From positions 1 to 64,000 of IMG/VR virus record IMGVR_UViG_3300037521_000345: 64,000 nucleotides of DNA. One strand, given 5' to 3'. Source of the stretch: a virus. Below, one piece after another: positions 8,767 through 55,322 of the stretch. Below the pieces are notes generated by a model. The model saw nothing but the letters and a program-made list of their open reading frames with translations. It was not told the origin of the DNA and did no database searches. The position numbers and the translations under genes were made by a program. Every line of letters begins with the position of its first letter. Position 1 is the stretch's first letter.

Positions 8767-9144
8767 ATGAAAAAAACTGTAATATTATCAGTAATCTTTT
8801 TGTTATTATGTTCACCTGTTTTCGCAACAACGTTTGCATGGGATCAACATACAGATAATTCTGTAATAGGATATTTACTACAATGGTCTGAAACCAATAA
8901 TCCACCAGAAATTTTCAGCATGAACGTTCCTGGCATTACTTCAACTCAAAAAGAAATATCAGATAATCTTTTCAAATTGGACACACAATATGATATTTGG
9001 GTAAAAGCATATAATACTGCCGGTGAGAGTGGTAAATCAAATACAGTGAACGCAACTAGAACAGCATATACACCACCTGCTGATAATATGCCAACTCAAA
9101 CATATGATGCTCCTGGTGCAGTAATGAATTTTACCAATCAATAA
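8767..9144 (+). CDS. Secreted fibronectin type III domain protein
   Basis: This 125-residue protein begins with a clear Sec signal peptide (MKKTVILSVIFLLLCSPVFA, cleavage near residue 20). A single fibronectin type III fold follows, with FAWDQHTDNSVIGYLLQW at the start and YDIWVKAYNTAGESGKSN near the end. The same FN3 type (WDP...GYRIHYG) forms the N-terminus of the metallopeptidase at 24398. FN3 modules commonly mediate carbohydrate or surface binding. A signal peptide is unusual for a virion protein, so it may act in the host envelope. Confidence 0.7.
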   Translation: MKKTVILSVIFLLLCSPVFATTFAWDQHTDNSVIGYLLQWSETNNPPEIFSMNVPGITSTQKEISDNLFKLDTQYDIWVKAYNTAGESGKSNTVNATRTAYTPPADNMPTQTYDAPGAVMNFTNQ

Positions 9145-23504: not shown

Positions 23505-24401
23505 ATGATAGTAATTAAAGATAACTTTAGATTAGTTAGTAATGTTCCCAATGTAATAAAATTATCTCCCGCTATGATTAAAAATTATACGTATGAGGAA
23601 AATAGTCCGCGTCATATTTTTGCATTTTTGGAGTTGAAGAGAAAGAGTATTCCTCATTTTACAAATAATACAATATTTAAATTAATTTCAAATAAAAAAT
23701 TACGTGAAACGGTACAGGTTGTAGATCTAGAACAATATCCTCTTCACGTTTCATATAATATTCCAACTAAAGGAATGATTACAAATTTAAATCCATTTGG
23801 TGTAAAAGAGATTTCAAGTTTAAGTGCTAATGATTTATACGCTTGTTTGGTATATTCATATGCATTTTCAAAGTTGGTTACAAAAAAATTTAAAATATCT
23901 GAATCCTATTCTAAACATATCATTGACTTTTTACTATCTATGTATGTTCAATTATTTGGAAGAAAGTATGGATTATTAGCAACATATTCATCTGGTATTT
24001 CAAAGTTAAAGTTTTTACTTGCTTGCTATATATATGCTGCTTTCTTTGGATATAAAAATGGAATACAATTATTTAAAACTGCATCCAGAGCAGCTCCATA
24101 TTTATATAATAATGAAATAGATTTATTATTAAAATATGACTTTAGTAAAATTGAAGATTTTGTTAAAGCTTTATCTGAAACAAAAGTTATGCCCGGTATT
24201 AATTTAATAAGATTTACAGCAACAATTCACGCTTTTATGAAGATTGAAATGTTAGCAGCATTGGAAGATGTTTCAAGATTTTTTTCTGTTTTATTGACTT
24301 CTAATATTCCAGGAGCAAGAGTGGTTCCAACATTTATTTCAAAATACAATGAAAGAGCTTATTTTAATATTATAGATATTATGCGAGGGATCTTTAAATG
24401 A
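23505..24401 (+). CDS. Hypothetical structural-region protein
   Basis: This 298-residue protein is mostly helical with many aromatic residues in the middle (AFSKLVTKKF, YIYAAFFGYKNG). It has no signal peptide or clear span. It starts directly after the gp53-like gene, and its stop overlaps the metallopeptidase start (ATGA). A baseplate or tail role is inferred from position only. Confidence 0.55.
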   Translation: MIVIKDNFRLVSNVPNVIKLSPAMIKNYTYEENSPRHIFAFLELKRKSIPHFTNNTIFKLISNKKLRETVQVVDLEQYPLHVSYNIPTKGMITNLNPFGVKEISSLSANDLYACLVYSYAFSKLVTKKFKISESYSKHIIDFLLSMYVQLFGRKYGLLATYSSGISKLKFLLACYIYAAFFGYKNGIQLFKTASRAAPYLYNNEIDLLLKYDFSKIEDFVKALSETKVMPGINLIRFTATIHAFMKIEMLAALEDVSRFFSVLLTSNIPGARVVPTFISKYNERAYFNIIDIMRGIFK

Positions 24402-25471
24402 AAAGTAAAGAATATTTAAAACAGATACAAGAGATTAAATCTGTTAAGGTCGCTTGGGATCCAAACACTGAATCTAATCTTGCTGGATATAGAATTCATT
24501 ATGGAACATCTCCAGGAAAATATAGTCAAACCATTGATGTTGGAAATCCAATTAATAAAGAAAACACATTATGCGAGACAACAATTGATTTAGTTCCAGG
24601 AACTAAATATTTTATATCAATTTCAGCTTATGATACAAACAATAAAGAATCTGCATATTCAAAAGAAATAGTTAAAGAAATTGCTGTTGATACAGCAATC
24701 CTATATGGAGCGGTTGTTGCTACAGTTCTAATTGTAAAAGAGTTAATATTATTTTTTATATTTATAGCTCAAATAGCAGCTCAAACTAAAGTAGATAAAA
24801 GAAGATCAAAACAAATAAATGATATAATTAAAAAAATGGGTGTTAAGAGAATAATTTCAGTTCATATAGTTCCTCATAAAGAACCAAATGCATTTACTCC
24901 TGGAGGAAAGTATATCTATATTACGTCTGGTCTTTTAAAAATGTTAACTGAAAGAGAGTCTATGGCAGTTCTTTTACATGAAGTTTATCATACTATTGAT
25001 CATCATATTATTAAAAGAATGGCAACTGAATTTCCCTTATATTATATAGCAGCTCCGATAGCTATTACAGCAGCTCTATCAGTTGGATCATCAATAATAT
25101 TTATATCAATAACATCTATGATTGTTTTTATTATAACTATGTCATTTTTAAAGATTCCCTTAACACTTTTACTTTATAGAAAGCATGAGTATGATGCTGA
25201 TAATTATGCTATAAAAGCTGGATACGGAAAAGAAATTGCATCCTCATTATCTAAATTAGAAAAAGCATATATTAAAGCAACACAAGGTCATAAGTGTGGA
25301 GTAATTTGTAAAGTTATTAGACGTATTGAAGAAGCAATGGATGAGCATCCGCCAATACGTAAAAGGATTGAACAAGCATTAAAAAATGTAGAGCTTATGA
25401 AAGCTATAGCAAAAGCAAAGATATCATCTATCACTATTATAGTAAAAAACTTTTTTGGTAAAGGAAAATAA
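24398..25471 (+). CDS. FN3 domain fused to a membrane M48-type metallopeptidase
   Basis: In this 357-residue protein, residues 15-95 are a fibronectin type III domain (VAWDPNTESNLAGYRIHYG) and 98-126 a membrane span. Residues 140-345 form an M48 (HtpX/Ste24-like) zinc peptidase. HEVYH (194-198) binds the metal, EYDAD (264-268) supplies the third ligand, and two further hydrophobic segments lie between them. M48 enzymes normally degrade membrane proteins. Fusion to an FN3 domain and placement in a baseplate operon suggest an envelope-directed role, which is inferred. There is no N-terminal signal peptide. Confidence 0.75.
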   Translation: MKSKEYLKQIQEIKSVKVAWDPNTESNLAGYRIHYGTSPGKYSQTIDVGNPINKENTLCETTIDLVPGTKYFISISAYDTNNKESAYSKEIVKEIAVDTAILYGAVVATVLIVKELILFFIFIAQIAAQTKVDKRRSKQINDIIKKMGVKRIISVHIVPHKEPNAFTPGGKYIYITSGLLKMLTERESMAVLLHEVYHTIDHHIIKRMATEFPLYYIAAPIAITAALSVGSSIIFISITSMIVFIITMSFLKIPLTLLLYRKHEYDADNYAIKAGYGKEIASSLSKLEKAYIKATQGHKCGVICKVIRRIEEAMDEHPPIRKRIEQALKNVELMKAIAKAKISSITIIVKNFFGKGK

Positions 25472-26434
25472 ATGGACGATGGTGTTGTTAATAGACTGTA
25501 TGGAAATTATCGTGCTGAAGTTATTGATAATAAAGATACAGAAAAATTTGGGAGAGTTAAAATATGGATTCCCGATTTGATGCCTGAAATAGAAAAACAA
25601 AAAGGACTGTGGGCGAGACCTGCAAATAATCCAATTGGAGGTCGAAATACAGAAGGTGATACTGAAAGTCATTATATGGGAACTTCATATATTCCAAAGA
25701 AAGGTTCATGGGTTTGGATTTTTTTCGAGACGGGTAATATAAATAGACCTTATTATTTTGGAGCTCTTGATTTACAAAATACTAAAGTGTTACCCGAGAA
25801 TCAAGTGGGAACTAACTATGAAGATAAGTGGACAATATTTAAAAGTCATAAGGGACGAACTATCATTATCTCTGATGATCCTTATGATCGAAGAGTTGAA
25901 ATAACAGGTCGTAAAATAAAATTAACTGGTAATGCTCCCACTGGTGGAATAGATTCTGTATATGAAATTGACGCAAATCAAAATACTATTCTATTAGATG
26001 AACGAAAAGATAAAGAAAAGATTTTAATTAGGACGTATAAGGGTGACTTTATTCATATAGATATTGATGAACAAAAACTTCAAATGTATTTTAAAAACGA
26101 TATTATCATAAAGACAGATGGTTCATTATATCTTGAAGCAAAAGAAGATATGCATATCAGAGCAACAACTGGTGATATAAAAGTAGAAGCTAGTTCAAAG
26201 GATGTTAATATTAAAGCTGCTGGAGATCTCAAATCATCTGCTGGAAATAGCATACAAGAGTTATCTGGTAGAGATCATAACGTTCAAGCTTTATATAATA
26301 TAAATAGACAAGCTGGTACTAATATTAATCATGATGCTGGAACTCTTGTTAATGAACAAGCAGGTGCTTCACCACCAGCAGAGCAAGGAGTATCACCGGA
26401 ACCAGCAGATCCGAAAGGAGAAAGGGATACATAA
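25472..26434 (+). CDS. Baseplate central spike/hub protein (gp5/VgrG OB-fold type)
   Basis: In this 320-residue protein, residues 5-110 form the gp5-type OB fold: YRAEVIDNKDTEKFGRVKIW, GTSYIPKKGSWVWIFFE and NRPYYFGAL. Residues 180-300 form a repetitive beta-helix (KEDMHIRATTGDIKVEASSKDVNIKAAGDLK). This is the needle that punctures the outer membrane on tail contraction. There is no lysozyme domain between them, unlike T4 gp5. The cell-wall enzymes are separate genes at 28232 and 29292. The C-terminus is a Pro/Glu-rich tail. Confidence 0.85.
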   Translation: MDDGVVNRLYGNYRAEVIDNKDTEKFGRVKIWIPDLMPEIEKQKGLWARPANNPIGGRNTEGDTESHYMGTSYIPKKGSWVWIFFETGNINRPYYFGALDLQNTKVLPENQVGTNYEDKWTIFKSHKGRTIIISDDPYDRRVEITGRKIKLTGNAPTGGIDSVYEIDANQNTILLDERKDKEKILIRTYKGDFIHIDIDEQKLQMYFKNDIIIKTDGSLYLEAKEDMHIRATTGDIKVEASSKDVNIKAAGDLKSSAGNSIQELSGRDHNVQALYNINRQAGTNINHDAGTLVNEQAGASPPAEQGVSPEPADPKGERDT

Positions 26435-27177
26435 TGGCAATATTACCTGTTGAAAGATCAATGTGTAATAAAATGGTGTTTGATTTTACCGGATTAATTT
26501 CACCATCACAATCAATAGAAAGTATAATAAGAGGTAAATCAAATCAGATCCAAGCTCTTTTAAATGGTTTGATTTCATCCCCACAGTCAGCAATTGATGC
26601 TGCCATATCTAATTTAACAGGCATGGTAGATAATGTAATACCAACTGCTACATTAAGTGATATGAGAGCACTAAAAAGATTTATTGAAGAATGTGAGTAT
26701 CTAAGTGGACTTTCAGCAATTGCAGCAATGTTAGGAGCATTAAACTCAATATATGATAAGATAAATGGATTCTTTGATAATATTGGTGCCACTCTTCCAG
26801 AGTTTGATATTAGTAAAATTGCCAGTATAATAAATGATTTATTAGGCGGAAGAGGAATGAATATCTCAAATCTATTAAAAGATTTAGATAAATTACTCAA
26901 CTGTATTGCATTATATTGTGGTGGAGAATATCCAAATCAATTAACAAATATGACTACTGCACTAAATCAAACTTATTCTAATTTGAATATAACAAGTAAT
27001 CCAGGAAGTTCAAGTTATGGAGATTTTGATTTTAAAACATTATATGATGACGCAGGATTATCATTAACACAGATGGGTCAAATTGATCAAGTTACAGCAG
27101 CAGCTGATGGAGAAAAAGATAGAGCTGAATCAACAATCAAAGATGCGATTGATATTTATAAGGAGAATTTATTATAA
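26434..27177 (+). CDS. Hypothetical baseplate-region protein
   Basis: This 247-residue protein is rich in Ile, Asn, Ser and Leu with many short amphipathic helices (IASIINDLLGGRGMNISNLLKDLDKLL). Low charge and repeated Ile/Asn/Leu spacing fit a structural or elongated protein. It overlaps the stop of the spike gene and is followed by another acidic structural candidate. No family is recognised. Confidence 0.55.
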   Translation: MAILPVERSMCNKMVFDFTGLISPSQSIESIIRGKSNQIQALLNGLISSPQSAIDAAISNLTGMVDNVIPTATLSDMRALKRFIEECEYLSGLSAIAAMLGALNSIYDKINGFFDNIGATLPEFDISKIASIINDLLGGRGMNISNLLKDLDKLLNCIALYCGGEYPNQLTNMTTALNQTYSNLNITSNPGSSSYGDFDFKTLYDDAGLSLTQMGQIDQVTAAADGEKDRAESTIKDAIDIYKENLL

Positions 27178-27740
27178 TGAGTGATGCTAGTGATAAACTA
27201 AGAGAAATGATTGGTGATGCTGAAACTGAATCAGAGAATTTACAAAGTAGCATATCACAAATTGATGATATTAAAGAGGATGTAACAGAACAAATTTCAG
27301 CAATTGAAGATGGTATGTGTACAGTTGCTGCAGATGATTTAACTACATATTTAACAGATGTTAAACTTCCAGAATTTCAGGTAATTCAACCTACTGCTAT
27401 TTTAAGTTTTGGTGGAGATTATGGAAGTATTGATTATGATGATGGAAATATAACAGATTGGGAAATATATTATATGACTATTGTTATACCACCAGCAGTT
27501 TCAGTAAAAGTTGTATTATATGAATATGAAGGAACTGGTTGGGATAATGATGAAGAAATTATTAAATGGGTTGAAGATTATGATTTTGGAAATGATTATT
27601 TAACAAGACCTTTAGACTCTGGTGCAACATATGGTTTGATTCCATATAAAGAAAATTTAGATTCAGCTCTTGATATTTTAAATAATAATAAAGATAAGGT
27701 TGATGATTCAGTAGCAGCTTTAGGAGATTATGCAACATAA
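27177..27740 (+). CDS. Hypothetical acidic structural-region protein
   Basis: This is a 187-residue, strongly acidic protein with a helical first 45 residues and a beta-rich middle (EFQVIQPTAILSFGGDYGSIDYDDG). It ends in a helix. It overlaps the previous gene by one base. No family is recognised; position suggests a baseplate or tail fibre attachment role. Confidence 0.55.
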   Translation: MSDASDKLREMIGDAETESENLQSSISQIDDIKEDVTEQISAIEDGMCTVAADDLTTYLTDVKLPEFQVIQPTAILSFGGDYGSIDYDDGNITDWEIYYMTIVIPPAVSVKVVLYEYEGTGWDNDEEIIKWVEDYDFGNDYLTRPLDSGATYGLIPYKENLDSALDILNNNKDKVDDSVAALGDYAT

Positions 27741-27758
27741 ATATTGGAGTTAAAATAA

Positions 27759-28214
27759 ATGAAAAAATATATTTTTTTAATTTTATTACTAATTATAAGT
27801 TGGAGTTGTTGGGCATGGGCAGAAAGTAAATTATATGTATTTGGAGATGCAGCAGTTCTATCTGGATTTTATGTAATCAATAAAGCAACTGGAGAAAGAA
27901 TAGGTTATATTGCTGTAGGAACGAGTGGTGAATTTGAGATGACAATTGAACTAGAATTAGTTCCAGTTTATATTGCAGATGGTGATAAACCTCCGCCTGA
28001 TCCTACATGGATTCCTAATAAGGAAAATGCTTTTCAAACTAGTTGCAATACTTGTCATAGTCAGGAAACAGAAGATAAATTTGAGTTTGAAAAATGGAAA
28101 ACAAAACTTGTAGATTGGACTAATGATCTTAATGCACCAAATGATGATGGTCATAAAAAGCATATGAAGATAGAGAAACCAGTTGTTTGCACTGCATGCC
28201 ATAGAAGAATTTAA
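27759..28214 (+). CDS. Secreted di-haem c-type cytochrome-like protein
   Basis: This 151-residue protein has a Sec signal peptide (residues 1-21, cleavage after AWA). It has two CxxCH haem-attachment motifs, CNTCH at 96-100 and CTACH at 144-148. Extra His at 132 and 135 could be distal haem ligands. Residues 25-75 form a small beta domain (GFYVINKATGERIGYIAVG). c-type cytochromes carry electrons in the periplasm of respiring bacteria and need the host maturation system. Finding one between baseplate genes is unusual, and it implies a host with c-type cytochromes. Confidence 0.75.
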   Translation: MKKYIFLILLLIISWSCWAWAESKLYVFGDAAVLSGFYVINKATGERIGYIAVGTSGEFEMTIELELVPVYIADGDKPPPDPTWIPNKENAFQTSCNTCHSQETEDKFEFEKWKTKLVDWTNDLNAPNDDGHKKHMKIEKPVVCTACHRRI

Positions 28215-28231
28215 ATAATTAAAGGAGAATT

Positions 28232-29278
28232 ATGCCATACAGTTCTAGATTGACAGATATATGGACAGGTATTTGCTGTTGTCATAAAAATCCTAAATGT
28301 ATATCAATGAGTGGACCTGTAATAACTGGAGCACCCAAGAATAAATCTGGTAGTTTAATACAAGCATTTTTAACTTCAATGACACAAGGAACTTGTGGTC
28401 ATACAGGAAAAATTATAACAGCGAGTGCTACAGTTAAAACAGCATCTCTTGGTAAAGCTAGAGTTGGAGATATTGTAACCGGTTGTAATATGGGTAAAAT
28501 GATTACAGGATTACCAAAGCATAATGTTGAATCAGGCACTTCAAATGTAATCTCAACCAAGATAACATTTCAAGATCAAATTATTGAGTTTACAGAAGTT
28601 GATTATGGAAATGTTGATGATGATGCAGATACAGATGATGGACTAAATATATTTCCTCCAGTTACAACTAGAGCACCAACACAAGAGGAACAAGATAGAT
28701 CGGATGCATTAGATGTATCTCCAATAACAGAAGTAGCAGAAGATGTAACAGCAACTAATACATCCACTCCACCAATACTATGTGATGAAGTTGGCGATGT
28801 TGCTGATCCTGATTTTCAACTATCAGCTAATTATCAATTGAAAGAGTTATCAACAAAAGCTATTATCTCCCATGATTATGTAAGAGCACAACATAGTTTG
28901 AGTGTTGCTGATATTGTTTGTAATCTTCAAGCAGTAGCACAATTTGTACTTGAACCATTGGTAACAGCATATGGAAAAGAGAACTTTATTATAACATCAG
29001 GATTTAGATCTGGAAGTTCAATATCACAACACGAAAGAGGACAAGCTGTTGATATTCAATTTCCATTATATACAAATGAGCAAGTCTATGATGTTGCAAA
29101 TATAATGAAAAATACATATGACTTTGATCAATTCATTTTGGAGTATGGAGGAAATAGACCCTGGATTCACTGCTCATTCAATCGAGCTGGTAATCGAACA
29201 AATATAGCATCTAATAAATTTGGAACTAGAATATCACCAGGTAATTATATCTGGAGATCAATTAAATATATGACTTAA
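28232..29278 (+). CDS. PAAR-like tip domain fused to an M15 peptidoglycan peptidase
   Basis: This is a 348-residue protein. Residues 1-105 have the Cys- and Gly-rich PAAR-like layout (PVITGAPKNKSG, TVKTASLGKARVGDIVTG), the cone that sharpens a contractile spike. A flexible acidic linker follows. Residues 205-345 are an M15 D,D-peptidase with SGFRSGSSISQHERGQAVDIQ and a closing WIHCSFN, which together supply the zinc ligands and catalytic acid. The fusion would deliver a wall-cutting enzyme at the very tip. It lies downstream of the gp5-like spike gene and directly before an amidase. Confidence 0.8.
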   Translation: MPYSSRLTDIWTGICCCHKNPKCISMSGPVITGAPKNKSGSLIQAFLTSMTQGTCGHTGKIITASATVKTASLGKARVGDIVTGCNMGKMITGLPKHNVESGTSNVISTKITFQDQIIEFTEVDYGNVDDDADTDDGLNIFPPVTTRAPTQEEQDRSDALDVSPITEVAEDVTATNTSTPPILCDEVGDVADPDFQLSANYQLKELSTKAIISHDYVRAQHSLSVADIVCNLQAVAQFVLEPLVTAYGKENFIITSGFRSGSSISQHERGQAVDIQFPLYTNEQVYDVANIMKNTYDFDQFILEYGGNRPWIHCSFNRAGNRTNIASNKFGTRISPGNYIWRSIKYMT

Positions 29279-29291
29279 GAGGTAATTAATT

Positions 29292-29810
29292 ATGAGACTG
29301 CCATTTAAAGCAGCATTATTAAATATCAGACGTGGACCAGTAAAGTGGATTATTATTCATCATACAGCAGAATTATATGAAGCTCCTGAGACACGAATTG
29401 ACAATGCTAAATTTCAATTACCCGGTATCACAAATGGTGTCTTAGAAAAATCAGCTCCAGATATAAATTACAACTATATTATTGAAAAAATCAAAGAAGA
29501 TTATATTCCAATCGTGTGTCGTCCTGTTTCAAGTCTATGTGAATGGGACGACATATCTGATGCTATAAATAAACGAGCTGTTCATATTGCATTAATGGGC
29601 AGTTATGACTTCAAAGTTCCTGAGCGAAGACTATATGAAGTTCTCTCCTATCGCTTAATAAGTCCAATGATAAAAATTTATGGACTCTCTCCATCCCGCG
29701 TCAAGTTTCATAGAGACGTATCTAATAATAAACAATTATCTTGTCCTGGAGATTTCGCTGATCGAGGCAAATTAGAATCGACAATTAAACGTTTTATGAT
29801 AACAAGATAA
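29292..29810 (+). CDS. N-acetylmuramoyl-L-alanine amidase (amidase_2 type)
   Basis: In this 172-residue protein, IIHHTAE near residues 21-27 supplies the first zinc His. VKFHRD (H140) and SCPGDF (C151) supply the other two ligands, the usual amidase_2 set. These enzymes cut the bond between the glycan chain and peptide of peptidoglycan. There is no signal peptide, so release would need a holin, or the enzyme is carried by the virion. It ends the structural operon before a 353-base non-coding gap. Confidence 0.85.
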   Translation: MRLPFKAALLNIRRGPVKWIIIHHTAELYEAPETRIDNAKFQLPGITNGVLEKSAPDINYNYIIEKIKEDYIPIVCRPVSSLCEWDDISDAINKRAVHIALMGSYDFKVPERRLYEVLSYRLISPMIKIYGLSPSRVKFHRDVSNNKQLSCPGDFADRGKLESTIKRFMITR

Positions 29811-29829
29811 TTCATTTTTAAAATCACCT

Positions 29830-29845
29830 CTATATATATTAATAA
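29830..29845 (+). promoter_or_regulatory. Promoter-like element, class A (CTATATATATTAATAA)
   Basis: This is an identical copy of the 16-mer at 1142, 31093 and 41231. The first helix of the structured RNA candidate starts six bases downstream at 29851, the distance expected between a -10 box and a transcript start. Confidence 0.65.
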
Positions 29846-29850
29846 CTAAT

Positions 29851-30082
29851 AGAGTGGAACTTCCCTAAAGTAATGAGCGATAGAATAAATAATGATATCT
29901 TGACTGGATGTTATTTTAACTTCTGTCCCTCAAATTCACTCTGTCTTGTGCAGATCAAGTCCTGCTCGGAAAGGCCTCCGGGATCGGAAAGAGGACGTAT
30001 ATGGTGAAAGCAGTAGTTACTCATTTCTGTCTCCGCATAGGTGAGAGAACATCCTGCTTAATCGTCCCACTTGTTCTGCACA
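29851..30082 (+). ncRNA. Structured non-coding RNA candidate of unknown class
   Basis: No sizeable + strand gene occupies the gap 29811-30163, and its base composition is more GC-rich than its surroundings. Two domains can be folded by eye. AGAGTGGAA (29851-29859) pairs with TTCACTCT (29935-29942) with one bulge. TGTGCAGA (29947-29954) pairs with TCTGCACA (30075-30082), continuing after one mismatch as CAAGT/ACTTG (29956-29960 with 30069-30073). Inside the second domain AAGCAG (30008-30013) can pair with CTGCTT (30054-30059). A class A promoter lies just upstream. I do not recognise it as tRNA, tmRNA, 6S, RNase P or SRP RNA. Confidence 0.6.
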
Positions 30083-30109
30083 TTTCTTAATGGAAGTAAT
30101 TTAAGATAA

Positions 30110-30137
30110 AAGGAACAAATACATAATGAGGTATATT
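30110..30137 (+). promoter_or_regulatory. Promoter-like element, class B (variant AAGGAACAAA)
   Basis: AAGGAACAAA (30110-30119) is followed after 12 bases by TATATT. It lies between the structured RNA and the kinase gene at 30164. Confidence 0.5.
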
Positions 30138-30163
30138 AATTTTTTTCTAAACTTTGAAAGGAT

Positions 30164-31090
30164 ATGAAAATGGAATTTAATTTAAAGGGTAAAAATATTC
30201 TTGTAGTTGGGGATATAATGTTAGATCATTATGTGATGGGCGAAGTTGAAAGAATAAGCGCAGAGGCGCCAGTTCCAATAGTTCATGTAGAAAAAGAATA
30301 CTCAACTCTTGGAGGTTGTGGACACGTAGCATCTAGTATAAAAGAATTGGGTGCCAATGTTTTTTGTCTAGCTTCTATTGGTCATGATCAATATGGAAAA
30401 CGAATAGTAGATTTATTGGATGAAATTCAAGCGTTTCCAATGTTAGTTATGGCATCAAAGAATACAATTGTTAAAGAAAGAGTTATTGCAAATCAAAGAA
30501 AAATACAAATGATTCGTATTGATAGAGAAACTATTCAACCAGTTGATTCTTCATTTCCTATTGGTTTTTTAAAAGAATATGATGAAATAACATACGATAT
30601 TATTGTAGTTTCTGATTATGGAAAAGGAATGATTACAAAGGATCTTATGAATTTTCTACACAAATTAGAAATACGAATAATTGTAGATCCTAAACCAAAA
30701 AATTTTAAACTATATAGTGATGTTTTTATGATAACTCCCAATGAAAAAGAATGGGAAGAGATTATTAAAATAACACTTCCAAGATCTCCCAACTCAATGA
30801 ATTATATATTATTAACAGAAGGAAAGAACGGAATGACATTGGTAGATAATCAAGATGAATCTAAAATTAAAATACATTCTGATCCAGTCGAAGTGTATAA
30901 TGTTTCAGGTGCAGGAGATACAGTAGTTTCAATTATGGCAGTCTGTTTATCTATGGGATGGAATGTGATTGATTCTGCTCATATTGCTAATAAATGTGCT
31001 GCATATGTTGTTACTCAAGTTGGAACATCTATAGTTCCAAAAGATTTATTTTTTGAAATTGTTAAAAATTATAAAAAAGGAATAATTTAA
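30164..31090 (+). CDS. PfkB-family sugar kinase, HldE/RfaE kinase-domain type
   Basis: This 308-residue protein has the N-terminal KNILVVGDIMLDHY and GEVERISAEAPVPI signatures of the D-glycero-beta-D-manno-heptose-7-phosphate kinase branch. It also has GGCGHVASSIKELG, VVSDYGKGM and the PfkB catalytic GAGD at 249-252. This kinase makes the bisphosphate precursor of ADP-heptose for lipopolysaccharide core. The adenylyltransferase half of HldE is absent. A role in altering host lipopolysaccharide or in heptose-metabolite signalling is inferred. ATGs at 30164 and 30170 are both possible starts. Confidence 0.78.
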   Translation: MKMEFNLKGKNILVVGDIMLDHYVMGEVERISAEAPVPIVHVEKEYSTLGGCGHVASSIKELGANVFCLASIGHDQYGKRIVDLLDEIQAFPMLVMASKNTIVKERVIANQRKIQMIRIDRETIQPVDSSFPIGFLKEYDEITYDIIVVSDYGKGMITKDLMNFLHKLEIRIIVDPKPKNFKLYSDVFMITPNEKEWEEIIKITLPRSPNSMNYILLTEGKNGMTLVDNQDESKIKIHSDPVEVYNVSGAGDTVVSIMAVCLSMGWNVIDSAHIANKCAAYVVTQVGTSIVPKDLFFEIVKNYKKGII

Positions 31091-32781: not shown

Positions 32782-33231
32782 ATGTCAACAAAAACAATTC
32801 AAGAACGATTTCAAACATTAAATGAATTAATAAGAACAGTAGCAACAAATCTCGAACCACATGATACAATCAAAGCTCTTCAACAAAAACAATTGAGAGA
32901 TAGATTAAGAGGAAAATATCCAAAGTGTTTTCTTTCTATTAAAGCAATGGGTGGACAAGATCCGGATTTTTTTCCAGTCTGTAATACAGCAGGAATGATA
33001 GATGTTAGAGCAATAGAGATATCTCTAAAAGCAGTTTCAAGATTGATGAACGATACCAGTGGAGCATATGATACTAATGATCTATCCATGATGTTAGCAA
33101 AACTTCAAAGGATGAAAGATGTCTATTCTAAGACTATTCCAAAACCACCCAATCAAGCAGGAAGAAAAGCAGTAGTCACCAGAATGATGAATAATGTTAA
33201 AGATCATTTAAAAGTAACTAGGACTGACTAA
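32782..33231 (+). CDS. Hypothetical protein, first gene of the polymerase operon
   Basis: This 149-residue basic protein has helical ends and a central FLSIKAMGGQDPDFFPVCNTAG segment. The stop overlaps the beta-prime start, so it is translationally coupled to it. It could be a polymerase accessory protein by position only; no family is recognised. Confidence 0.6.
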   Translation: MSTKTIQERFQTLNELIRTVATNLEPHDTIKALQQKQLRDRLRGKYPKCFLSIKAMGGQDPDFFPVCNTAGMIDVRAIEISLKAVSRLMNDTSGAYDTNDLSMMLAKLQRMKDVYSKTIPKPPNQAGRKAVVTRMMNNVKDHLKVTRTD

Positions 33232-36200
33232 TGAAAATAAAATTTCTTGATGTTGATAGATTTGTGAGAGGATTAGATCCTGTTACAACTGCTGAATTTA
33301 GAACTAGATCTGGAGAGTTTCATCCAGATGGTTTATTTAGTGAAAAAATATTTGGTGTTGAAAATTCTAGGGATCGAACCCAGACCTACTCATATATAAA
33401 TCTTAGTACTACAGTTATACATCCTGCTGCATTTATTATCTTTAAAAGAATTGATAAAAAACTAATTAATTTTTTTTCAACTGAAAAACTTTTTACAATT
33501 CAAGATAATGGATTATATTTTGAAACTGAAAAAGGGGTAACAGGAATCAAGGAATTTATTAAAGCATTTCCAAAGTTAGAATTTAAAGCTGGAACACCTG
33601 CAAGAGAAGGATTAATTGAAGTTTTGAAAGAGAATTATAAGAATGGTACATTATTCATTGATAAAATTCCGGTTATACCTCCTGAACTTAGACCAGCATA
33701 TATGGATGAAAAGGGTCAATGGATTATTGATGAGCTCAATCCCGTTTATATTGGTCTTTTAAGAAGAGCAACTCAAATAAAAGGTATTGGTAAATCAGGT
33801 GCATTGTTTGATCTGTTAAATTATAACTTACAATTAGCTGTTAATTCACATGATAAATATATTCGAACAAAGATCTCTAAAAAACATGGACTCATTAGAG
33901 ATAAAATGATGGGAAAAAGAGTTGATTTTTCAGCAAGAGCTGTTATTATTCCTGGACCAAAACTAAAAATTAATGATGTGGGATTACCTTTAAGAATAGG
34001 AATTCTTTTATTTCAACCTTTTATTATACACCATATGCTTTATTCTCAAAGATATCCAAGATATGCTGAATTAGAAAGTGAAATTAAAAATTATACTGAT
34101 TCTGAATTATCAGTCGATACAATAAAAAGAGTAATGAAAGGAATCAAGGATGATGATAAAATTCCTGTGTCCTTATATGAGCTATTTTTTGAAGTATGTG
34201 AAATCGTGATGAAAGATAGGGTTGTTATATTAAAACGCGACCCTGCACTACATGACGGTTCATATAGAGCATTTAACCCTATATTAACAAGAGGTAGTGA
34301 AATAGAATTATCAACAATGCAAGTTGCTTCTTTTAATGCAGATTTTGATGGAGATCAAATGGCAGTTTATCATCCTCTTTCAGATCAAGCTCAACAAGAA
34401 GCTAAAGAAAAAATGATGAGAGGAGTTGGAAGTAAAAGTTCAAATTCTATTATGTATGAGATTTCAAAAGAAATGAGTTTGGGTATTTACTTAATGACCA
34501 AAGCAACTAAATTAAAAAGTTCTCCAATAGCAGTAACAATGGATGATTTGAAAAAAGCAAATAATCCATACATCCCTGTTAGATTTAGAGGTCATAATAC
34601 AACAATGGGAAGAGCTATTTTAAATTCTTCATTTCCTTCTGACTTTAAATGGATTGATGGACAAGTTACAAAAAGTGATGTTAATAAATTAATTCCTGAA
34701 GTTATTGATAAATATGGGGATGAAGCTTCAGCTAATATTTTTACAAGTGTTAAGGATGTAGCATTTAAATTTGCAACGATTGGAGCATCTTCATTAACTT
34801 TAGATATATTAGATATACCTGATAGTATATTAAGATTGAAAGAAAAACTTGTAGGGTCATCTCCAGAAGAAGCTGATAAATTATTGAAAGAGATGGAAGT
34901 ATTATTAAAGAAACATTTAAAAGATACTGGTCTATACGATTTGATTGAATCTGGTTCTGCAAAAGGTTGGAGTCAACCAATGCAGATTCTTGTTGCTAAA
35001 GGTATTATTGCTGATACAAGTGGTAAATTGCTCGAACCTATTAAAGGATCATTTTCAGAAGGGTTAACAAATATAGAATATTTTAATGCAGCAGGTGGTG
35101 CTAGAAAAGGAATGGCAGATCGAGCTTTGAATACTGCTACAACTGGATATTTTACAAGACAACTTGTCTATGTATTATCTCCAGTAGAAGCACATCCTAC
35201 ACTAAAAGATTGTAAAACAAAACGAACTATTCAAATAAGATTAAATAATGATCTTATTAAAAGGATGTCAGGTCGATATATTATTAAAAGTGGTAAAATA
35301 GTTTTATTTAAAAAATCAGATTATAAACCAGGGGATGTTGTTAACTTAAGAACATCTATTTATTGTGAGTCTTATAAATTATGTCATACCTGTTATGGGG
35401 ATTTATTGAAACGTCATAAATCTCCTTATGTTGGAGTTCTAGCAGGAGCATCAATTGGAGAACGTGGAACTCAATTAATTATGAGAACATTTCATACTGG
35501 TGGTGCTGCTAGTATAGTTATTCGTGATGTTTTAGCAGATATTATTGATAATGATCCAATGATTGAAGTAGGTAAAACAAAGTTAGGCGAATATTTACAA
35601 CAGGAAGATGATAAATTAATAGCTAAAAAAGAATGTAATATAAAAATTGATCTGTCAACATATGAAGTAGAAAAATCTTATTTAATTGAAGAAGATAATG
35701 TTTGGTTTAATCACCTTGTTTCGCAAGTAGAATTTAATGATATAATTTTTAATATGGCACTTGATTATCCAGTTCATTTATTAAAACAGAATTTTAAAAA
35801 GGTAGGAAAAGAATCACTAATATTTAAGTATTCAATTGGAGATACGATATTAGAAATTCCTTTACAAACAACAGAGATTAAAGAGCAGGTGAATTATGTT
35901 AATAGATTAATTGGAGGTCGAGTAGTTTATAAGGATCCTTCTCATTTGTTAACAAAAGTTATGAAAGTGTATGGCGGAAGTATATCTGATTTAGACTTAT
36001 GCTATTTTGAAGTCCTATGTTCACAAGTTTTAAGAGATAGAAAGAATCAAGTATTACCTGCAAGACTTGGAAAGACTTGGGATCCTGTAATGATGAACAT
36101 TAAAAGCACAGTTTTTAGTACAAGTTTTATTCAGAGTTTAGCATTTGAAAACATCAATAAAGCTATTGAAACTGGATTGATTTCTAAACAAGATGTGCCT

Positions 36201-36248
36201 GCAACAATATTAGAGAAATTAGTGACAGGAGAGGATTTAAGGAAATAA
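33231..36248 (+). CDS. rpoC: Phage RNA polymerase, beta-prime subunit homologue
   Basis: This 1005-residue catalytic subunit of a multi-subunit RNA polymerase has the invariant NADFDGDQ at 369-376, whose Asp residues bind the catalytic magnesium. Around it lie the KMMGKRVDFSARAVI-like strand near 225 and GLPLRIGILLFQPF (clamp/bridge region). A CHTC-containing Cys group lies near 711-720, followed by GASIGERGTQLIMRTFHTGG, the trigger-loop region. Bacterial beta-prime is about 1400 residues, so this is compact. It is one uninterrupted frame, not split. It precedes beta, the reverse of the usual bacterial rpoB-rpoC order. Confidence 0.93.
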   Translation: MKIKFLDVDRFVRGLDPVTTAEFRTRSGEFHPDGLFSEKIFGVENSRDRTQTYSYINLSTTVIHPAAFIIFKRIDKKLINFFSTEKLFTIQDNGLYFETEKGVTGIKEFIKAFPKLEFKAGTPAREGLIEVLKENYKNGTLFIDKIPVIPPELRPAYMDEKGQWIIDELNPVYIGLLRRATQIKGIGKSGALFDLLNYNLQLAVNSHDKYIRTKISKKHGLIRDKMMGKRVDFSARAVIIPGPKLKINDVGLPLRIGILLFQPFIIHHMLYSQRYPRYAELESEIKNYTDSELSVDTIKRVMKGIKDDDKIPVSLYELFFEVCEIVMKDRVVILKRDPALHDGSYRAFNPILTRGSEIELSTMQVASFNADFDGDQMAVYHPLSDQAQQEAKEKMMRGVGSKSSNSIMYEISKEMSLGIYLMTKATKLKSSPIAVTMDDLKKANNPYIPVRFRGHNTTMGRAILNSSFPSDFKWIDGQVTKSDVNKLIPEVIDKYGDEASANIFTSVKDVAFKFATIGASSLTLDILDIPDSILRLKEKLVGSSPEEADKLLKEMEVLLKKHLKDTGLYDLIESGSAKGWSQPMQILVAKGIIADTSGKLLEPIKGSFSEGLTNIEYFNAAGGARKGMADRALNTATTGYFTRQLVYVLSPVEAHPTLKDCKTKRTIQIRLNNDLIKRMSGRYIIKSGKIVLFKKSDYKPGDVVNLRTSIYCESYKLCHTCYGDLLKRHKSPYVGVLAGASIGERGTQLIMRTFHTGGAASIVIRDVLADIIDNDPMIEVGKTKLGEYLQQEDDKLIAKKECNIKIDLSTYEVEKSYLIEEDNVWFNHLVSQVEFNDIIFNMALDYPVHLLKQNFKKVGKESLIFKYSIGDTILEIPLQTTEIKEQVNYVNRLIGGRVVYKDPSHLLTKVMKVYGGSISDLDLCYFEVLCSQVLRDRKNQVLPARLGKTWDPVMMNIKSTVFSTSFIQSLAFENINKAIETGLISKQDVPATILEKLVTGEDLRK

Positions 36249-36280
36249 CAGTCTGTGGAAGTATTTGGAGATAAACTCAT

Positions 36281-39200
36281 ATGATTAAATTTCAATCTTT
36301 AGTTCAATATTCAAGAGTAGTTGATGGAGTTCGTTTCTTTTCAGATAAGGATAGACCGTTCGTATTATTTTATTTCTCCGAGAATTCAACTCTATATGAA
36401 GATTATCCTAAAATGAATTTAAGAAGAATAGATGCAAGATATATAGTTGTTCCAATAACCCAGATACCTGTCTCTAGATTAACGGGCGATCAAAGAAAAG
36501 TTTATAAATCTTTTGGTTTACTTCCATTTCAATCAAATCAAGTATATCCCTTAAATGCAAATATTATATTCGATACCAGTAAATATGTTTCCTTGATAGA
36601 TAAGATGTATAAACCAACAACATATAGACAAAGAGCAGGTTTTCTTCTAAATAATTTTCTTTATAAATCATTTAATTCGTTTCCTGATAACTATGAAAAA
36701 GTTCTAATTTATACTGTTGATGTTAATAAACCAATCAATTCGTTTATAAATCGAAAGATTTTTCCTATATTAAGAACTATGAAAGGAGATGAAATTTCAT
36801 TTGATCATATGCTTATGGCATTGATTGGAGAGTCGTCAACTAGATATAGACTATTAGTTAAAGACAGAAACTATAAATTTGCAAGAGTTTCTCAATATAT
36901 AAGAAAAGTTAAAATGATTAGTTCAGATGATGAGAAAGAACAAGAAGTTAAAACAGCAACGAACTCATTTGATGAGAAAGATTCTAAAGTTAAAACAGCA
37001 ATTCAAAACTATTTAAATAAAAATGCTAAAGATCTTGAGAAAGTTTCTAATAATGAACTTGATAAAACAGAAAGAGATAGATTAACAATAGCTTCTATCT
37101 TATATAAATTAACAGGAGATTTTCAAAAGTCTCAAAGACTTGCAAAAGCTATTCCTAAAAAAAGTATTAAAACTGCAACTGAAAAGATAAGTCGTTTATA
37201 TAAAGATGACTTATTAACAGGTGAAAAAGCTGTTAGTCTTAGTGAATCATATATTGTTCAGGGAATAAATGTTTCCAGGGTAGTTCAAAATAAAACACCA
37301 GAGCATATATTTGACAAAAGAAGAATTGACTTTCAAACAAATTTAAAAAAGGATATGTCAAATGCTTTTAAAGTTTTAGAAAAAGGAAACGTTCCTATTA
37401 AATTTAATTCATTTAAAATTACTCATAAAAAAGGAAGAGCTGGAGAACTTAAAAAATCAGATGTTTCAATTATAACTGTAAGTATAACAGATGCAGCAGG
37501 AAAGAATCAAACATTTGAGTTTGAAATTCCACAGATTGATCCTGACTCTGGAACATTTAGAGTTAATGGTCAGCGCAAATGTTTAATTAATCAAATAGTG
37601 TTGACTCCAATAAGTTTTCCTAAACCTTATGATTCCAAATTTGAGAGTTCATATGCAAGATTCCATATCTATAGTAAGAAGACAAAGAGATTGTCGTATC
37701 TAGAAGCATACATGGGTTCCTTCCGCCTACCCTTGATGATACTGTTATCATATTGTTTTGGATTTGAAAAAACAGTTAAAAAATTAGGATTACAATATGA
37801 AATTGTAAAAGATAAACCTAATAAGGATGTAGTCTTTACAGAAGTTCCTTCTTCATATATGGTATTTAAAAATTTAGATACTGATTTAAAAAAGGAAATG
37901 GTAACATCATTCACGCACGCTAAAATTAATCAATACAACATTAAAAAAGATTTTTTATCAAAAGATTATTTTGTAGAGTTGATTATACAAATGACTGGAC
38001 GTGTCGATTCAACATATCTGATAAATAATAATATTGATTATATCGTTGATCCAGTTGCAAAACAAATTTTAGTTAATCAATTATTACCATATAAATTAGA
38101 AGATATTATGCATTATATGGCAACTAAATCTGTTGATGGTTATGTTCAAGAAAGAAATGATATTAAATATCAAAGAATTAGAAATTCAGAAATTTTAGTT
38201 CATTTAGCACAAAAACAATTTCTTAGTTCTTATACTGAATATAAAGAACAGTTTTTATCAGGAAATAAAGATGCTAAATTTAATTTTCCTCCAGGAGTTA
38301 TATTAAGTCAATTTACTAACTTAGAGATAGTTCAAAATATGGAGTATGCAAATCCAGTTGAAGAGATGGCAACAATTACAAAGATTTCTCCAGTTGGAAA
38401 AACAGTTGGAGGTATTCCAGATAAGGAAGGATTAAATCTTCAAGCTCGAAATGTTCATAGATCATATTTTGGAAATATTGATCCGGTGGATACAGCAGAA
38501 GGTGGTAACATTGGGGTAACCCAACAGTTGACAGTGGACGCATATTTAACATCCTCCCGTGGATTGTTTGGAATTAAAGATTTAAAAAATGATGAAGGAG
38601 CTGGAATATTATCTACAACACTTTCAATGGTTCCATTTATTGAAAACAATGAAGGTGCAAGAATGATAATGGCAGGTAATCAAGGAAAACAAATGTTACC
38701 TTTAAAAAATCCAGAACCTCCTATAGTTCAAACAGGATATGAGTCATTACTTTCAAATGTTTTGTCTAATAATTTTATCAAGAGATCACCTTGTGCTGGA
38801 AAAGTGACAAAAATTACTGGAGATTTTATTGAAATAGCTTGTAATAAAGGTTCTAAAAAGAAAGTTGTTATCACACCAGTTCAATTAAAATCAGGAGCTG
38901 GAAAAAATACATTGAGCACATTTAAACCATCTGTTGAGGTTGGACAATCAGTTAAAAATAAGCAAGTAATTGCAGAGGGAAGTTGTATTTCTGGCGGAAC
39001 TATTTCATTAGGAAGAAATCTTGCTACTTGTTATATGCCTTATCAAGGATATAATTTTGAAGATGGTCTTGTAATAAATGAACGATTAGTATCTGATGAT
39101 AAATTAACTTCTTTACATGGAATTGATGTTGAGGCAACAGTTGATCGTAAAGATAGAATTTTACATATTATTGATATTGGAGCTAAAACTAAAAAGGGTG

Positions 39201-40345
39201 ACCCTCTAATAAGAAAGACAGCAGGTGAAATTGAAGAACTATTAGGATTTCAAGAAGAAGAGGAAGAAGGAGTTGATGTATATGAGGGTCAAATAATTAC
39301 AAAAAGTCCAGGTGGTCATGTTGTTGATATTGACGTATTTTCTAATATTGATATAGATTCTTTTCCTTCCATTAAAAAGTTAGTTGAAAGAACTAATAAA
39401 AAATATAAAAAACCTACTAAAGAAAAATTTACAACTAGAGGGGTTTCAATTAAAGGGATATTAATTATATTTAGAATTGAACAAGAGTTAAAAATTGGAG
39501 TGGGAGATAAACTCTGTAACCGATATGGAAATAAAGGTATTATATCTTTAGTTCAAAAAGATGAATTAATGCCAAGAACACCTTGGGGTGAAACAGTTGA
39601 TATTATTATGAATCCTCTTGGAGTTACTGGTCGAATGAATATAGGTCAAATATATGAATTGTATTGTGGTCTTATCTCTAAAGAAGTAGCAAATAGAATG
39701 GTTAAATTGAGCAAAGCTCAAGGCATTGCATTGATGAAAGCTGTAATAACAAGACTTGATAATACAAAAAATAAAAAAATTAGTACATCATTGATTGCTA
39801 CAATGACTGCAATGAGCGATGTAAAATATAAAAAGATGTTAGAGCAAATTCAAAAAGATAAGTTTATACCAATAGTTATTCCTCCATTTCAATCTCCTAA
39901 ACATAAAAGTATTTTAGAAGTATTAAAATTATTAAAATTAAAAACAGGATATAAATTAAAACTTCCAGAGTATAATACAAAAACTCAAAATGCGGTTCCA
40001 TTTGGATATGAATATGTTTCTAAATTAGAACATATTTCAGATGCTAAATTACATGCTAGATCAACTGGTCCAACAACTGGAAAAGTTGGTCAACCAACTG
40101 CTGGTAAAAGAAAAGAGGGTGGGCAAAGAATAGGAGAAGGAGATACATGGGCATTAACAAGTTATAATTGTCCTACAATATTATCTGAACTCTTTGGACC
40201 TATGTCTGATGACTTTGTATCTAAAAATGAAATGATGTCAGAAATTATACAAAATGGAAGAACAGATTTTAAAGAAACAAAAATGTCTCCAACTAGAGAT
40301 TTATTAAAAGCATATTTTATTTCTTTAATGCTAGGAGGTCAATAA
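36281..40345 (+). CDS. rpoB: Phage RNA polymerase, beta subunit homologue
   Basis: This 1354-residue subunit has EIPQIDPDSGTFRVNGQRKCLINQ (fork/protrusion region) and ARNVHRSYFGNIDPVDTAEGGNIG, near the rifampicin-pocket equivalent. It also has GYNFEDGLVINERLV and GDKLCNRYGNKGII, the conserved Lys region, and ends in a domain matching the beta C-terminus with GEGDTWAL. Its length is close to bacterial beta (about 1340). It forms the second half of the active cleft. No alpha or omega homologue is seen in the window. Promoter specificity would come from a phage or host factor not identified here. Confidence 0.92.
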   Translation: MIKFQSLVQYSRVVDGVRFFSDKDRPFVLFYFSENSTLYEDYPKMNLRRIDARYIVVPITQIPVSRLTGDQRKVYKSFGLLPFQSNQVYPLNANIIFDTSKYVSLIDKMYKPTTYRQRAGFLLNNFLYKSFNSFPDNYEKVLIYTVDVNKPINSFINRKIFPILRTMKGDEISFDHMLMALIGESSTRYRLLVKDRNYKFARVSQYIRKVKMISSDDEKEQEVKTATNSFDEKDSKVKTAIQNYLNKNAKDLEKVSNNELDKTERDRLTIASILYKLTGDFQKSQRLAKAIPKKSIKTATEKISRLYKDDLLTGEKAVSLSESYIVQGINVSRVVQNKTPEHIFDKRRIDFQTNLKKDMSNAFKVLEKGNVPIKFNSFKITHKKGRAGELKKSDVSIITVSITDAAGKNQTFEFEIPQIDPDSGTFRVNGQRKCLINQIVLTPISFPKPYDSKFESSYARFHIYSKKTKRLSYLEAYMGSFRLPLMILLSYCFGFEKTVKKLGLQYEIVKDKPNKDVVFTEVPSSYMVFKNLDTDLKKEMVTSFTHAKINQYNIKKDFLSKDYFVELIIQMTGRVDSTYLINNNIDYIVDPVAKQILVNQLLPYKLEDIMHYMATKSVDGYVQERNDIKYQRIRNSEILVHLAQKQFLSSYTEYKEQFLSGNKDAKFNFPPGVILSQFTNLEIVQNMEYANPVEEMATITKISPVGKTVGGIPDKEGLNLQARNVHRSYFGNIDPVDTAEGGNIGVTQQLTVDAYLTSSRGLFGIKDLKNDEGAGILSTTLSMVPFIENNEGARMIMAGNQGKQMLPLKNPEPPIVQTGYESLLSNVLSNNFIKRSPCAGKVTKITGDFIEIACNKGSKKKVVITPVQLKSGAGKNTLSTFKPSVEVGQSVKNKQVIAEGSCISGGTISLGRNLATCYMPYQGYNFEDGLVINERLVSDDKLTSLHGIDVEATVDRKDRILHIIDIGAKTKKGDPLIRKTAGEIEELLGFQEEEEEGVDVYEGQIITKSPGGHVVDIDVFSNIDIDSFPSIKKLVERTNKKYKKPTKEKFTTRGVSIKGILIIFRIEQELKIGVGDKLCNRYGNKGIISLVQKDELMPRTPWGETVDIIMNPLGVTGRMNIGQIYELYCGLISKEVANRMVKLSKAQGIALMKAVITRLDNTKNKKISTSLIATMTAMSDVKYKKMLEQIQKDKFIPIVIPPFQSPKHKSILEVLKLLKLKTGYKLKLPEYNTKTQNAVPFGYEYVSKLEHISDAKLHARSTGPTTGKVGQPTAGKRKEGGQRIGEGDTWALTSYNCPTILSELFGPMSDDFVSKNEMMSEIIQNGRTDFKETKMSPTRDLLKAYFISLMLGGQ

Positions 40346-41397: not shown

Positions 41398-41503
41398 TCT
41401 GGAAAGACTTTATGTGATTTCCGAGCTGTGTTGGTACAGCATCTTACTATTAATAAGAAGCAAGGGTTCAACTCCCTGTAACTTACATCTGCTACTTTCC
41501 AGA
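41398..41503 (+). ncRNA. Y RNA-like unit 2 with tRNA-like module
   Basis: The outer helix is a perfect 9-bp pair (41398-41406 with 41495-41503) whose sequence differs from unit 1, yet complementarity is kept. The inner helix is ATGTGA (41412-41417) with TTACAT (41483-41488). The D-arm is identical to that of unit 1. The anticodon-like stem is a perfect 5-bp TCTTA/TAAGA with loop CTATTAA (41447-41453). The T-loop is TTCAACT (41467-41473), which fits the canonical TTCRANY pattern. Conserved GACTT and TACTT flank the internal loop. Confidence 0.75.
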
Positions 41504-54068: not shown

Positions 54069-55308
54069 TGGATTAAAACCCGTTGAGAGAAGAGTTTTAT
54101 TATCAGCATTTAAAATTGCAAGAACTAAATTTGCTAAATGCAGACAAGTTGACACTTATACTTGTGGTCATTATCATCCACACGGAGAATGCTATGGAAC
54201 AATAGTTCAATTAGTTAAACAAGGATTCTTAACAGGTCAAGGAAATTTTGGTACAAACGTTGGAATTGAAACTGTTGGACCAGCAGCTCCAAGATATACA
54301 GAATGTAAAATAAATGACTATACATTAAACCTGGCATTTAAGCTGGTCAAATATGTTCCATGGATTCAAACGGAACTTGATGATAAAGAACCAGCTTATC
54401 TTCCAACAATGTTTCCAGTATGTTTGATGGGAAAAGAATACACTCAAGGTATTGGATTTGGATATAAAACATTTATTCCTTGTTATGAAGTTAAAGATTT
54501 ATATAAAAGATTATTATGGTTACTAAATAAACGAAAAACAAAACCCACAATTAAACCAATTACCGACTGTGTAATATTATCAGGTAATGATACATTAGAA
54601 CAATTGTTGACAACTGGAAAAGCAAAAATTGATGTGAGGGGAATAATTCAAGAAGAACCCACAAGAAATAAAGCTATATTAAAATCGTGGCCACCTGGAA
54701 AGAGATTTGAAACAATTTTAAATAGACTTTCAAAACATTTTGAAAACGCTGATATTGGATTTACAGATTTATCAGTAACAGATACACAAATTGTATTTCA
54801 AGTTTTGAAAAATAGAAATAGAGATATAATGTATCGAAGATTTGTAAAAGATTTAAAAGAATCAGTTAATGGTTCAATTTCATTTGAAACTATAACAGTT
54901 AATACAAATGAAAATCAAAGAGTAGTACATAAATCAATAGATCAATTATTATTAGATACATATTCTGCTTATTGTAAAACAACAGAAATAATGATCAGGC
55001 AAGAAATTGAAAGACATGCTCAACTTATTAAAGAATATGAAGCATTGAGAAAAATTAGACCAGTTATCGCAAGTGGAGTTTCGAATAAATTATCACAAGA
55101 AAATATATTAGATGAAATTAAAAGATTAACAGATGTATCTAAAAAAATTGCTAAAGAATTAATGAATAAATATAAAATAAGTAAGTTATTAACATTAGAT
55201 ATAGATACAAATGAAATAAACAATCAAATGAATCAACTAAATCGACTAATCAAACAAATAGTTCCATACGTATTAAAGGGATATGATGATTTCCTTAAGT
55301 TAAAATAA
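53992..55308 (+). CDS. 52: Type II topoisomerase cleavage subunit (GyrA/T4 gp52-like)
   Basis: In this 438-residue protein, Y102 in PAAPRYTECK is the nucleophile that forms the covalent DNA link. HYHPHGECYG and QGNFGTN are the conserved DNA-gate segments. The C-terminal DNA-wrapping domain of gyrase is absent, so it is T4 gp52-like and not expected to supercoil. I place the start at ATG 53992, six bases after AGGAG. It overlaps the upstream gene by 77 bases. Its partner is encoded at 49464, five genes earlier. Confidence 0.9.
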   Translation: MDRNLPNLYREYGTYSNYRNFPLDLDGLKPVERRVLLSAFKIARTKFAKCRQVDTYTCGHYHPHGECYGTIVQLVKQGFLTGQGNFGTNVGIETVGPAAPRYTECKINDYTLNLAFKLVKYVPWIQTELDDKEPAYLPTMFPVCLMGKEYTQGIGFGYKTFIPCYEVKDLYKRLLWLLNKRKTKPTIKPITDCVILSGNDTLEQLLTTGKAKIDVRGIIQEEPTRNKAILKSWPPGKRFETILNRLSKHFENADIGFTDLSVTDTQIVFQVLKNRNRDIMYRRFVKDLKESVNGSISFETITVNTNENQRVVHKSIDQLLLDTYSAYCKTTEIMIRQEIERHAQLIKEYEALRKIRPVIASGVSNKLSQENILDEIKRLTDVSKKIAKELMNKYKISKLLTLDIDTNEINNQMNQLNRLIKQIVPYVLKGYDDFLKLK

Positions 55309-55322
55309 TGGAGGATATTAAT

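What the first reader, a model, noticed from the sequence alone, without database searches (positions are those of the whole stretch)
27759..28214. Phage-encoded di-haem c-type cytochrome in the baseplate region
A signal peptide and two CxxCH motifs are clear. c-type cytochromes are rare in phage genomes. Its place between baseplate and spike genes raises the possibility of a virion-associated or periplasmic electron-transfer or host-recognition role, for example mimicry of host outer-surface cytochromes.
Basis: partly seen in the sequence, partly recalled or inferred. Interest (0 to 1): 0.7.

Follow-up and report, generated by a model that had tools for sequence, protein, structure and literature searches.

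The report
Exported two-haem cytochrome gene in phage
A tailed phage from a metagenome carries, inserted as a single extra gene among its tail genes, a small exported protein with two haem-attachment sites, probably made to act in the envelope of the infected bacterium rather than to be part of the virus particle.

Summary
ORF 27759-28214(+) encodes 151 aa with a signal peptide (predicted cut AWA|ES) and two CxxCH motifs (C96-H100, C144-H148). The only other His residues (H132, H135; HxxH) could be the two distal haem ligands, giving a minimal bis-His di-haem c-type cytochrome. Shuffling gives two CxxCH in 2 of 200,000 trials.

It is a true phage gene: a clean 483-bp single-gene insertion (27741-28223, own ribosome-binding site) between two tail genes that abut (8-12 bp) in five relatives. 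Codon use is phage-like. Twelve related records (1.5 Mb) hold no other ORF with two CxxCH. The only other copy found is in a 99.985%-identical record.

No homologue was found. Weak Pfam/NCBIfam hits are mostly reproduced by shuffled sequences that keep the CxxCH motifs, so no family beyond 'exported CxxCH protein' is shown.

The virion-associated role is not favoured: the protein is exported, the gene optional. I favour an accessory gene whose product is matured by the host's Ccm and carries electrons in the envelope late in infection. Main rival: superinfection exclusion by receptor blocking or mimicry; a surface cytochrome (OmcA) is a known phage requirement. Haem attachment and host are untested.

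The parts
27759..28214 (+). Exported di-haem c-type cytochrome-like protein, 151 aa (mature part ~130 aa, ~14.6 kDa without haem, pI 5.3)
27759..27821 (+). Sec signal peptide (residues 1-21), predicted signal peptidase I cut AWA|ES; C17 is preceded by SWS and does not fit the lipobox rule
   Evidence: read from the sequence; lipobox rule from memory
27822..28013 (+). N-terminal part of the mature protein (about residues 22-85), predicted beta-rich at low confidence, no family match
28044..28058 (+). First haem-attachment motif CNTCH (residues 96-100)
28152..28163 (+). HKKH (residues 132-135), candidate distal haem ligands
   Evidence: ligand role is inference
28188..28202 (+). Second haem-attachment motif CTACH (residues 144-148)
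27741..28223 (+). 483-bp insertion relative to the closest relative (record G004 / L006): ribosome-binding site + gene, between TAA of one tail gene and GGAG of the next
27177..27740 (+). Upstream flank: 187-aa conserved tail-cluster protein, long helical hairpin (AF2 pLDDT 91), no structural match
28232..29278 (+). Downstream flank: PAAR spike-tip domain fused to M15 peptidase/endolysin domain
25472..26434 (+). gp5/VgrG-like central spike protein
29292..29810 (+). N-acetylmuramoyl-L-alanine amidase

Best explanation
The gene is an accessory (moron-type) gene acquired by this phage lineage into its tail/lysis gene cluster. It is probably transcribed with the late genes (inferred). The product is exported by Sec; the host's cytochrome c maturation system attaches two haems at CNTCH and CTACH in the periplasm, and H132/H135 supply the distal ligands (inferred from the residues). 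With both haems bis-His ligated there is no open site for catalysis, so the protein most likely works as a small electron carrier in the envelope of the infected cell. It would keep respiratory or extracellular electron flow going, or act as a redox buffer, late in infection. Shown: sequence anatomy, phage location, insertion, rarity. Inferred: haem attachment, timing, periplasmic location, electron-carrier role.
For: Signal peptide, two CxxCH and one HxxH in a 151-aa protein. Chance occurrence negligible. A clean insertion of one gene with its own ribosome-binding site between genes that abut in five relatives. Codon use rank 66 of 97 and GC3 0.146 against a mean of 0.166: a gene adapted to the phage, not assembly chimerism. 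Present in two records. A PfkB-type heptose-7-phosphate kinase (E=2e-79) points to an LPS-bearing, Gram-negative host, the kind in which c-type cytochromes mature in the periplasm. Precedent: cyanophages carry an exported electron carrier, plastocyanin, in 70 of 153 genomes (PMC10452541).
Against: No homologue of known function and no host known, so no partner for electron transfer can be named. Only one lineage has the gene, so selection on the haem ligands cannot be tested. No other redox or haem gene lies beside it. The family hits that would name it a multihaem electron carrier are mostly reproduced by motif-preserving shuffles. The N-terminal half (residues 22-85) is unexplained by a simple electron carrier.
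Confidence: 0.45

Rival explanations
1. Superinfection exclusion or receptor decoy: the exported protein binds or mimics an envelope protein that the phage uses as receptor (possibly a surface cytochrome or its porin partner), so that the infected cell, or released debris, no longer binds further particles.
For: Position among spike/baseplate genes resembles that of T5 llp, a small exported exclusion protein encoded next to the receptor-binding protein gene (PMC9586334). An outer-membrane cytochrome, OmcA, is needed for infection by a Shewanella phage (Grenfell 2023, cited in PMC12977616). An unexplained N-terminal domain could be the binding part. The closest profile is the MtrC/MtrF surface-cytochrome domain, at sub-threshold score. 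Relatives L008, L051 and L054 carry other small exported or lipoprotein genes close to this region.
Against: No lipobox that fits the rule, whereas Llp/Cor are lipoproteins; two haem sites are not needed for blocking; no receptor is known; the similarity to MtrC/MtrF is below cut-off and only modestly above shuffles (20 bits against at most 15.6 in ten).
Confidence: 0.22
2. Virion-associated cytochrome: it is part of the baseplate or spike and touches the host surface or its electron carriers on contact.
For: Its gene lies directly between tail genes, next to the PAAR spike tip.
Against: The signal peptide sends it out of the cytoplasm where tails assemble; relatives with 54-88% identical spikes lack it; the insertion is clean and adds nothing to the flanking genes.
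Confidence: 0.07
3. Not a cytochrome in practice: the Cys/His pairs bind another metal (zinc) or form disulphides, and the exported protein has a structural or binding role.
For: No family-level match to a cytochrome survives the shuffle control; AF2 model uninformative (pLDDT 35).
Against: Two exact CxxCH motifs and an HxxH in an exported protein are the standard pattern for c-type haem attachment; in a host with Ccm, exported CxxCH usually receives haem (established knowledge); zinc-finger profiles score no better than for shuffles.
Confidence: 0.13
4. Misassembly or host contamination rather than a phage gene.
For: Only one lineage carries it.
Against: Flanked on both sides by conserved phage genes in order; same in two records that differ by 11 substitutions over 73 kb; codon use matches the phage.
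Confidence: 0.02

Closest known systems
Class III / cytochrome c7-type multihaem modules (Pfam PF14537, PF14522)
   Same: CxxCH with preceding HxxH supplying distal ligands; small, exported
   Different: Only two haem sites; scores 15-16 bits against 25-bit cut-offs, and motif-preserving shuffles reach 19-20 bits; extra N-terminal domain
Outer-membrane MtrC/MtrF domain II/IV (PF22113)
   Same: Best profile hit (20 bits, E=5e-4) over the di-haem part; the known proteins also combine beta-rich and haem domains
   Different: Below the 30-bit cut-off; 2 haems, not 10; no lipobox; shuffles reach 15.6 bits
Cyanophage plastocyanin (PetE) and other phage electron-carrier genes
   Same: Phage-borne gene for a small exported electron carrier (PMC10452541)
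   Different: Copper protein of photosynthetic hosts, unrelated sequence
Borg-encoded multihaem cytochromes
   Same: c-type cytochromes on extrachromosomal elements (207 reported, PMC11208441)
   Different: Archaeal elements, at least 3 CxxCH by definition there, not a tailed phage with baseplate genes; the two real cytochromes met here in other viral contigs (L134, L227) also look archaeal
T5 Llp / T1 Cor superinfection-exclusion proteins
   Same: Small exported phage protein encoded beside tail-tip/receptor-binding genes (PMC9586334)
   Different: Lipoproteins without haem motifs; target FhuA; sequence resemblance not tested

Membership tests
c-type cytochrome (general) | CxxCH haem-attachment motif(s) | tested here: met
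   CNTCH 96-100 and CTACH 144-148
c-type cytochrome (general) | Export to the compartment where haem is attached | tested here: met
   N-terminal signal peptide read from sequence; no experimental proof
c-type cytochrome (general) | Covalently bound haem | not testable with these tools
   Needs haem stain or mass spectrometry
c-type cytochrome (general) | Candidate distal (sixth) ligands | tested here: met
   H132 and H135, the only other histidines; their role is inference
Cytochrome c3/c7 families (PF14537, PF14522) | Profile score over curated cut-off and over motif-preserving shuffles | tested here: not met
   15.9 and 15.3 bits against cut-offs 25 and 24.8; shuffles reach 20.1 and 19.3
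MtrC/MtrF domain II/IV (PF22113) | Profile score over curated cut-off | tested here: not met
   20 bits against 30; best of ten shuffles 15.6
RC-type or non-photosynthetic cytochrome (PF02276, NF033196) | Profile score over curated cut-off | tested here: not met
   11.7 against 22.4 and 15.7 against 70; a shuffle reaches 14.1 for NF033196
Phage auxiliary metabolic gene | On a phage genome, not needed for the virion, of metabolic function | tested here: inconclusive
   Phage location and optional insertion shown; metabolic function and host origin not shown
Llp/Cor-type superinfection-exclusion lipoprotein | Lipobox | tested here: not met
   ISWSC17: Trp at -2 does not fit the PROSITE lipobox rule as recalled; signal peptidase I site present instead
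Virion structural protein | Conserved in the tail cluster of related phages | tested here: not met
   Absent from all relatives with the locus

The most novel reading that the evidence does not exclude
The phage uses a host surface cytochrome complex as its receptor and encodes an exported two-haem mimic of it, beside its spike genes, that occupies the receptor system from inside or soaks up particles: a haem-bearing superinfection-exclusion protein.
Probability: 0.12. Interest if true: 0.8.

Novelty: new variant of a known kind. Interest (0 to 1): 0.5.

Why it matters
Phage genes for electron carriers are known mainly from cyanophages, and c-type cytochromes on mobile elements mainly from archaeal Borgs. 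A small exported di-haem cytochrome gene in the late cluster of a tailed phage would show that phages of respiring, cytochrome-rich bacteria also act on the envelope electron chain, or on surface cytochromes used as receptors. Both ideas can be tested with one small protein that is easy to express and stain for haem.

Tried and rejected
Close homologues were sought by 8-mer scans of viral and genome contigs, tblastn of INPHARED phages and PLSDB plasmids, and scans with a degenerate alignment A5 whose second and third rows I made up purely to widen the search patterns; they are not data. Only the near-identical record was found. A motif scan for CxxCH-x~31-HxxH-x~8-CxxCH in IMG/VR, limited to two of four codon choices at the last Cys-His, gave 54 stretches, of which only this gene is a plausible cytochrome. 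Weak Pfam/NCBIfam names (c3, c7, paired CXXCH, NrfB, RC cytochrome) were rejected as family assignments after shuffles keeping the motifs scored comparably. The idea that the N-terminal half is an fn3 domain like those at 8767 and 24398 got no support. AF2 of the single sequence was useless (pLDDT 35). The upstream neighbour folds well but matches nothing. Host could not be inferred: no bacterial genome handle was available and no paper names the metagenomes.

Full report
What is there. ORF 27759-28214(+) is exactly as described: 151 aa, an N-terminal signal peptide and two CxxCH motifs, C96-H100 and C144-H148. The protein has only four histidines: the two in the motifs and H132 and H135 (HKKH), eight residues before the second motif. 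That is the usual layout of a bis-His haem module (HxxH followed by CxxCH). Two CxxCH appear in 2 of 200,000 shuffles of this protein, and no other ORF of the 99-kb record has two (0.0 expected). The ATG is preceded by GGAG at 9 nt. C17 is inside the signal peptide and its context (SWSC) does not fit the lipobox rule as I recall it, so cleavage at AWA|ES is the better prediction.

Where it sits. The window is part of a 99,003-base virus record. Upstream are a gp5/VgrG-like spike (25472) and a 187-aa conserved helical protein; downstream a PAAR + M15 peptidase protein and an amidase. A search with the spike protein gave related phages with 46-88% identity. In L004, L006, L008, L054 and L066 the 187-aa gene and the PAAR gene abut with 8-12 bases between them. 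Against the closest relative the window carries a clean 483-base insertion, 27741-28223, between the stop codon of one gene and the ribosome-binding site of the next. Twelve related records, 1.52 Mb in all, hold no exported ORF with CxxCH and none with two CxxCH. The gene is therefore an optional addition, most simply a gain in this lineage. Codon use and GC3 match the phage. The only other copy is in a record 99.985% identical over 73 kb, with 11 substitutions, none inside this gene.

What it is related to. Nothing close was found among phages, plasmids, IMG/VR, or 84,980 genomes, within the limits of each scan. Profile hits over the last 58 residues name many multihaem families, the best being MtrC/MtrF domain II/IV at 20 bits (cut-off 30). 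As a control I shuffled the residues while keeping the CxxCH positions: the shuffled sequences hit c3, c7, paired-CXXCH, NrfB and NrfH profiles at comparable or better scores. Only the MtrC/MtrF score exceeds all ten shuffles (15.6 at most), which is suggestive and no more. So the protein can be called an exported CxxCH/HxxH protein, most likely a di-haem c-type cytochrome, but it cannot be filed in any named cytochrome family. The N-terminal half has no match at all. A scan of IMG/VR for this haem spacing found this gene and no other credible one, though it covered only two of four codon choices. Two real multihaem cytochromes found on other viral contigs with a looser pattern lie on archaeal-looking elements: one has a PGF-CTERM tail beside a replication factor C gene. 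This fits the published multihaem cytochromes of Borgs (PMC11208441).

How it probably works. An exported protein meets the host's cytochrome c maturation machinery, not the tail assembly site in the cytoplasm. That, and its absence from the tail cluster of every relative, argue against a virion part. Four His and four motif Cys suffice for two low-spin bis-His haems, which carry electrons but leave no open site. I therefore favour an accessory electron carrier or redox buffer in the host envelope during late infection, similar in kind to the exported plastocyanin of cyanophages (PMC10452541). The main rival is superinfection exclusion: T5 encodes its exported Llp next to its receptor-binding protein (PMC9586334), and the surface cytochrome OmcA is needed by a Shewanella phage (reference 32 of PMC12977616; I could not read that paper itself). 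The evidence does not separate these two; haem attachment, timing, location and host are all inferred.

Limits. The host is unknown. A heptose-7-phosphate kinase gene suggests a Gram-negative host. No other diverged copy exists in reach, so neither selection nor a reliable structure could be computed (AF2 pLDDT 35).

Noticed in passing
33231-40345 (window) and 70938-77282 of the 99-kb record (in L010): Two separate sets of large beta' and beta RNA polymerase genes (1005 + 1354 aa and 894 + 1009 aa) in one phage with a T4-type terminase; for the first beta' the best matches in cultured phages are only about 25-30% identical.
   Followed up: partly
29812-30163: 352-nt non-coding stretch between the amidase and heptose-kinase genes, GC-richer than its surroundings, folds far better than shuffles (-90.9 against -70.8 kcal/mol, z -4.7), no Rfam match; partly alignable to L006:12520-13012. 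Candidate structured RNA.
   Followed up: partly
30164-31090: D-glycero-beta-D-manno-heptose-7-phosphate kinase-like protein (HldE/RfaE domain I, E=2e-79), with apparent counterparts in relatives L004, L006 and L054: possible LPS modification by the phage.
   Followed up: partly
24398-25471: Fibronectin III domain fused to a membrane-bound HtpX-like M48 metalloprotease, encoded directly before the spike; other relatives have a membrane protein in this place apparently without fn3.
   Followed up: partly
8767-9144: Second exported protein of this phage: signal peptide plus one fibronectin III domain, 125 aa.
   Followed up: no
61930-62952 and 55308-55757: Radical SAM protein (weak hits to PapB and to prokaryotic viperins, below cut-offs) and a QueD-like 6-carboxytetrahydropterin synthase.
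   Followed up: no
41416-41485: tRNA-like match just over the Rfam gathering score (29.9 against 29 bits) that ARAGORN does not call.
   Followed up: no
L054:10267-13859: A relative (248 kb) carries four lipoprotein or exported-protein genes between the amidase and heptose-kinase genes, so this tail/lysis region may be a favoured site for exported cargo.
   Followed up: partly
L134:1762-3786 and L227:7978-9096: Multihaem cytochromes (5 + 5 and 8 CxxCH) on contigs filed as viral; L227 has a PGF-CTERM anchor and a replication factor C gene, so an archaeal element is likely.
   Followed up: partly
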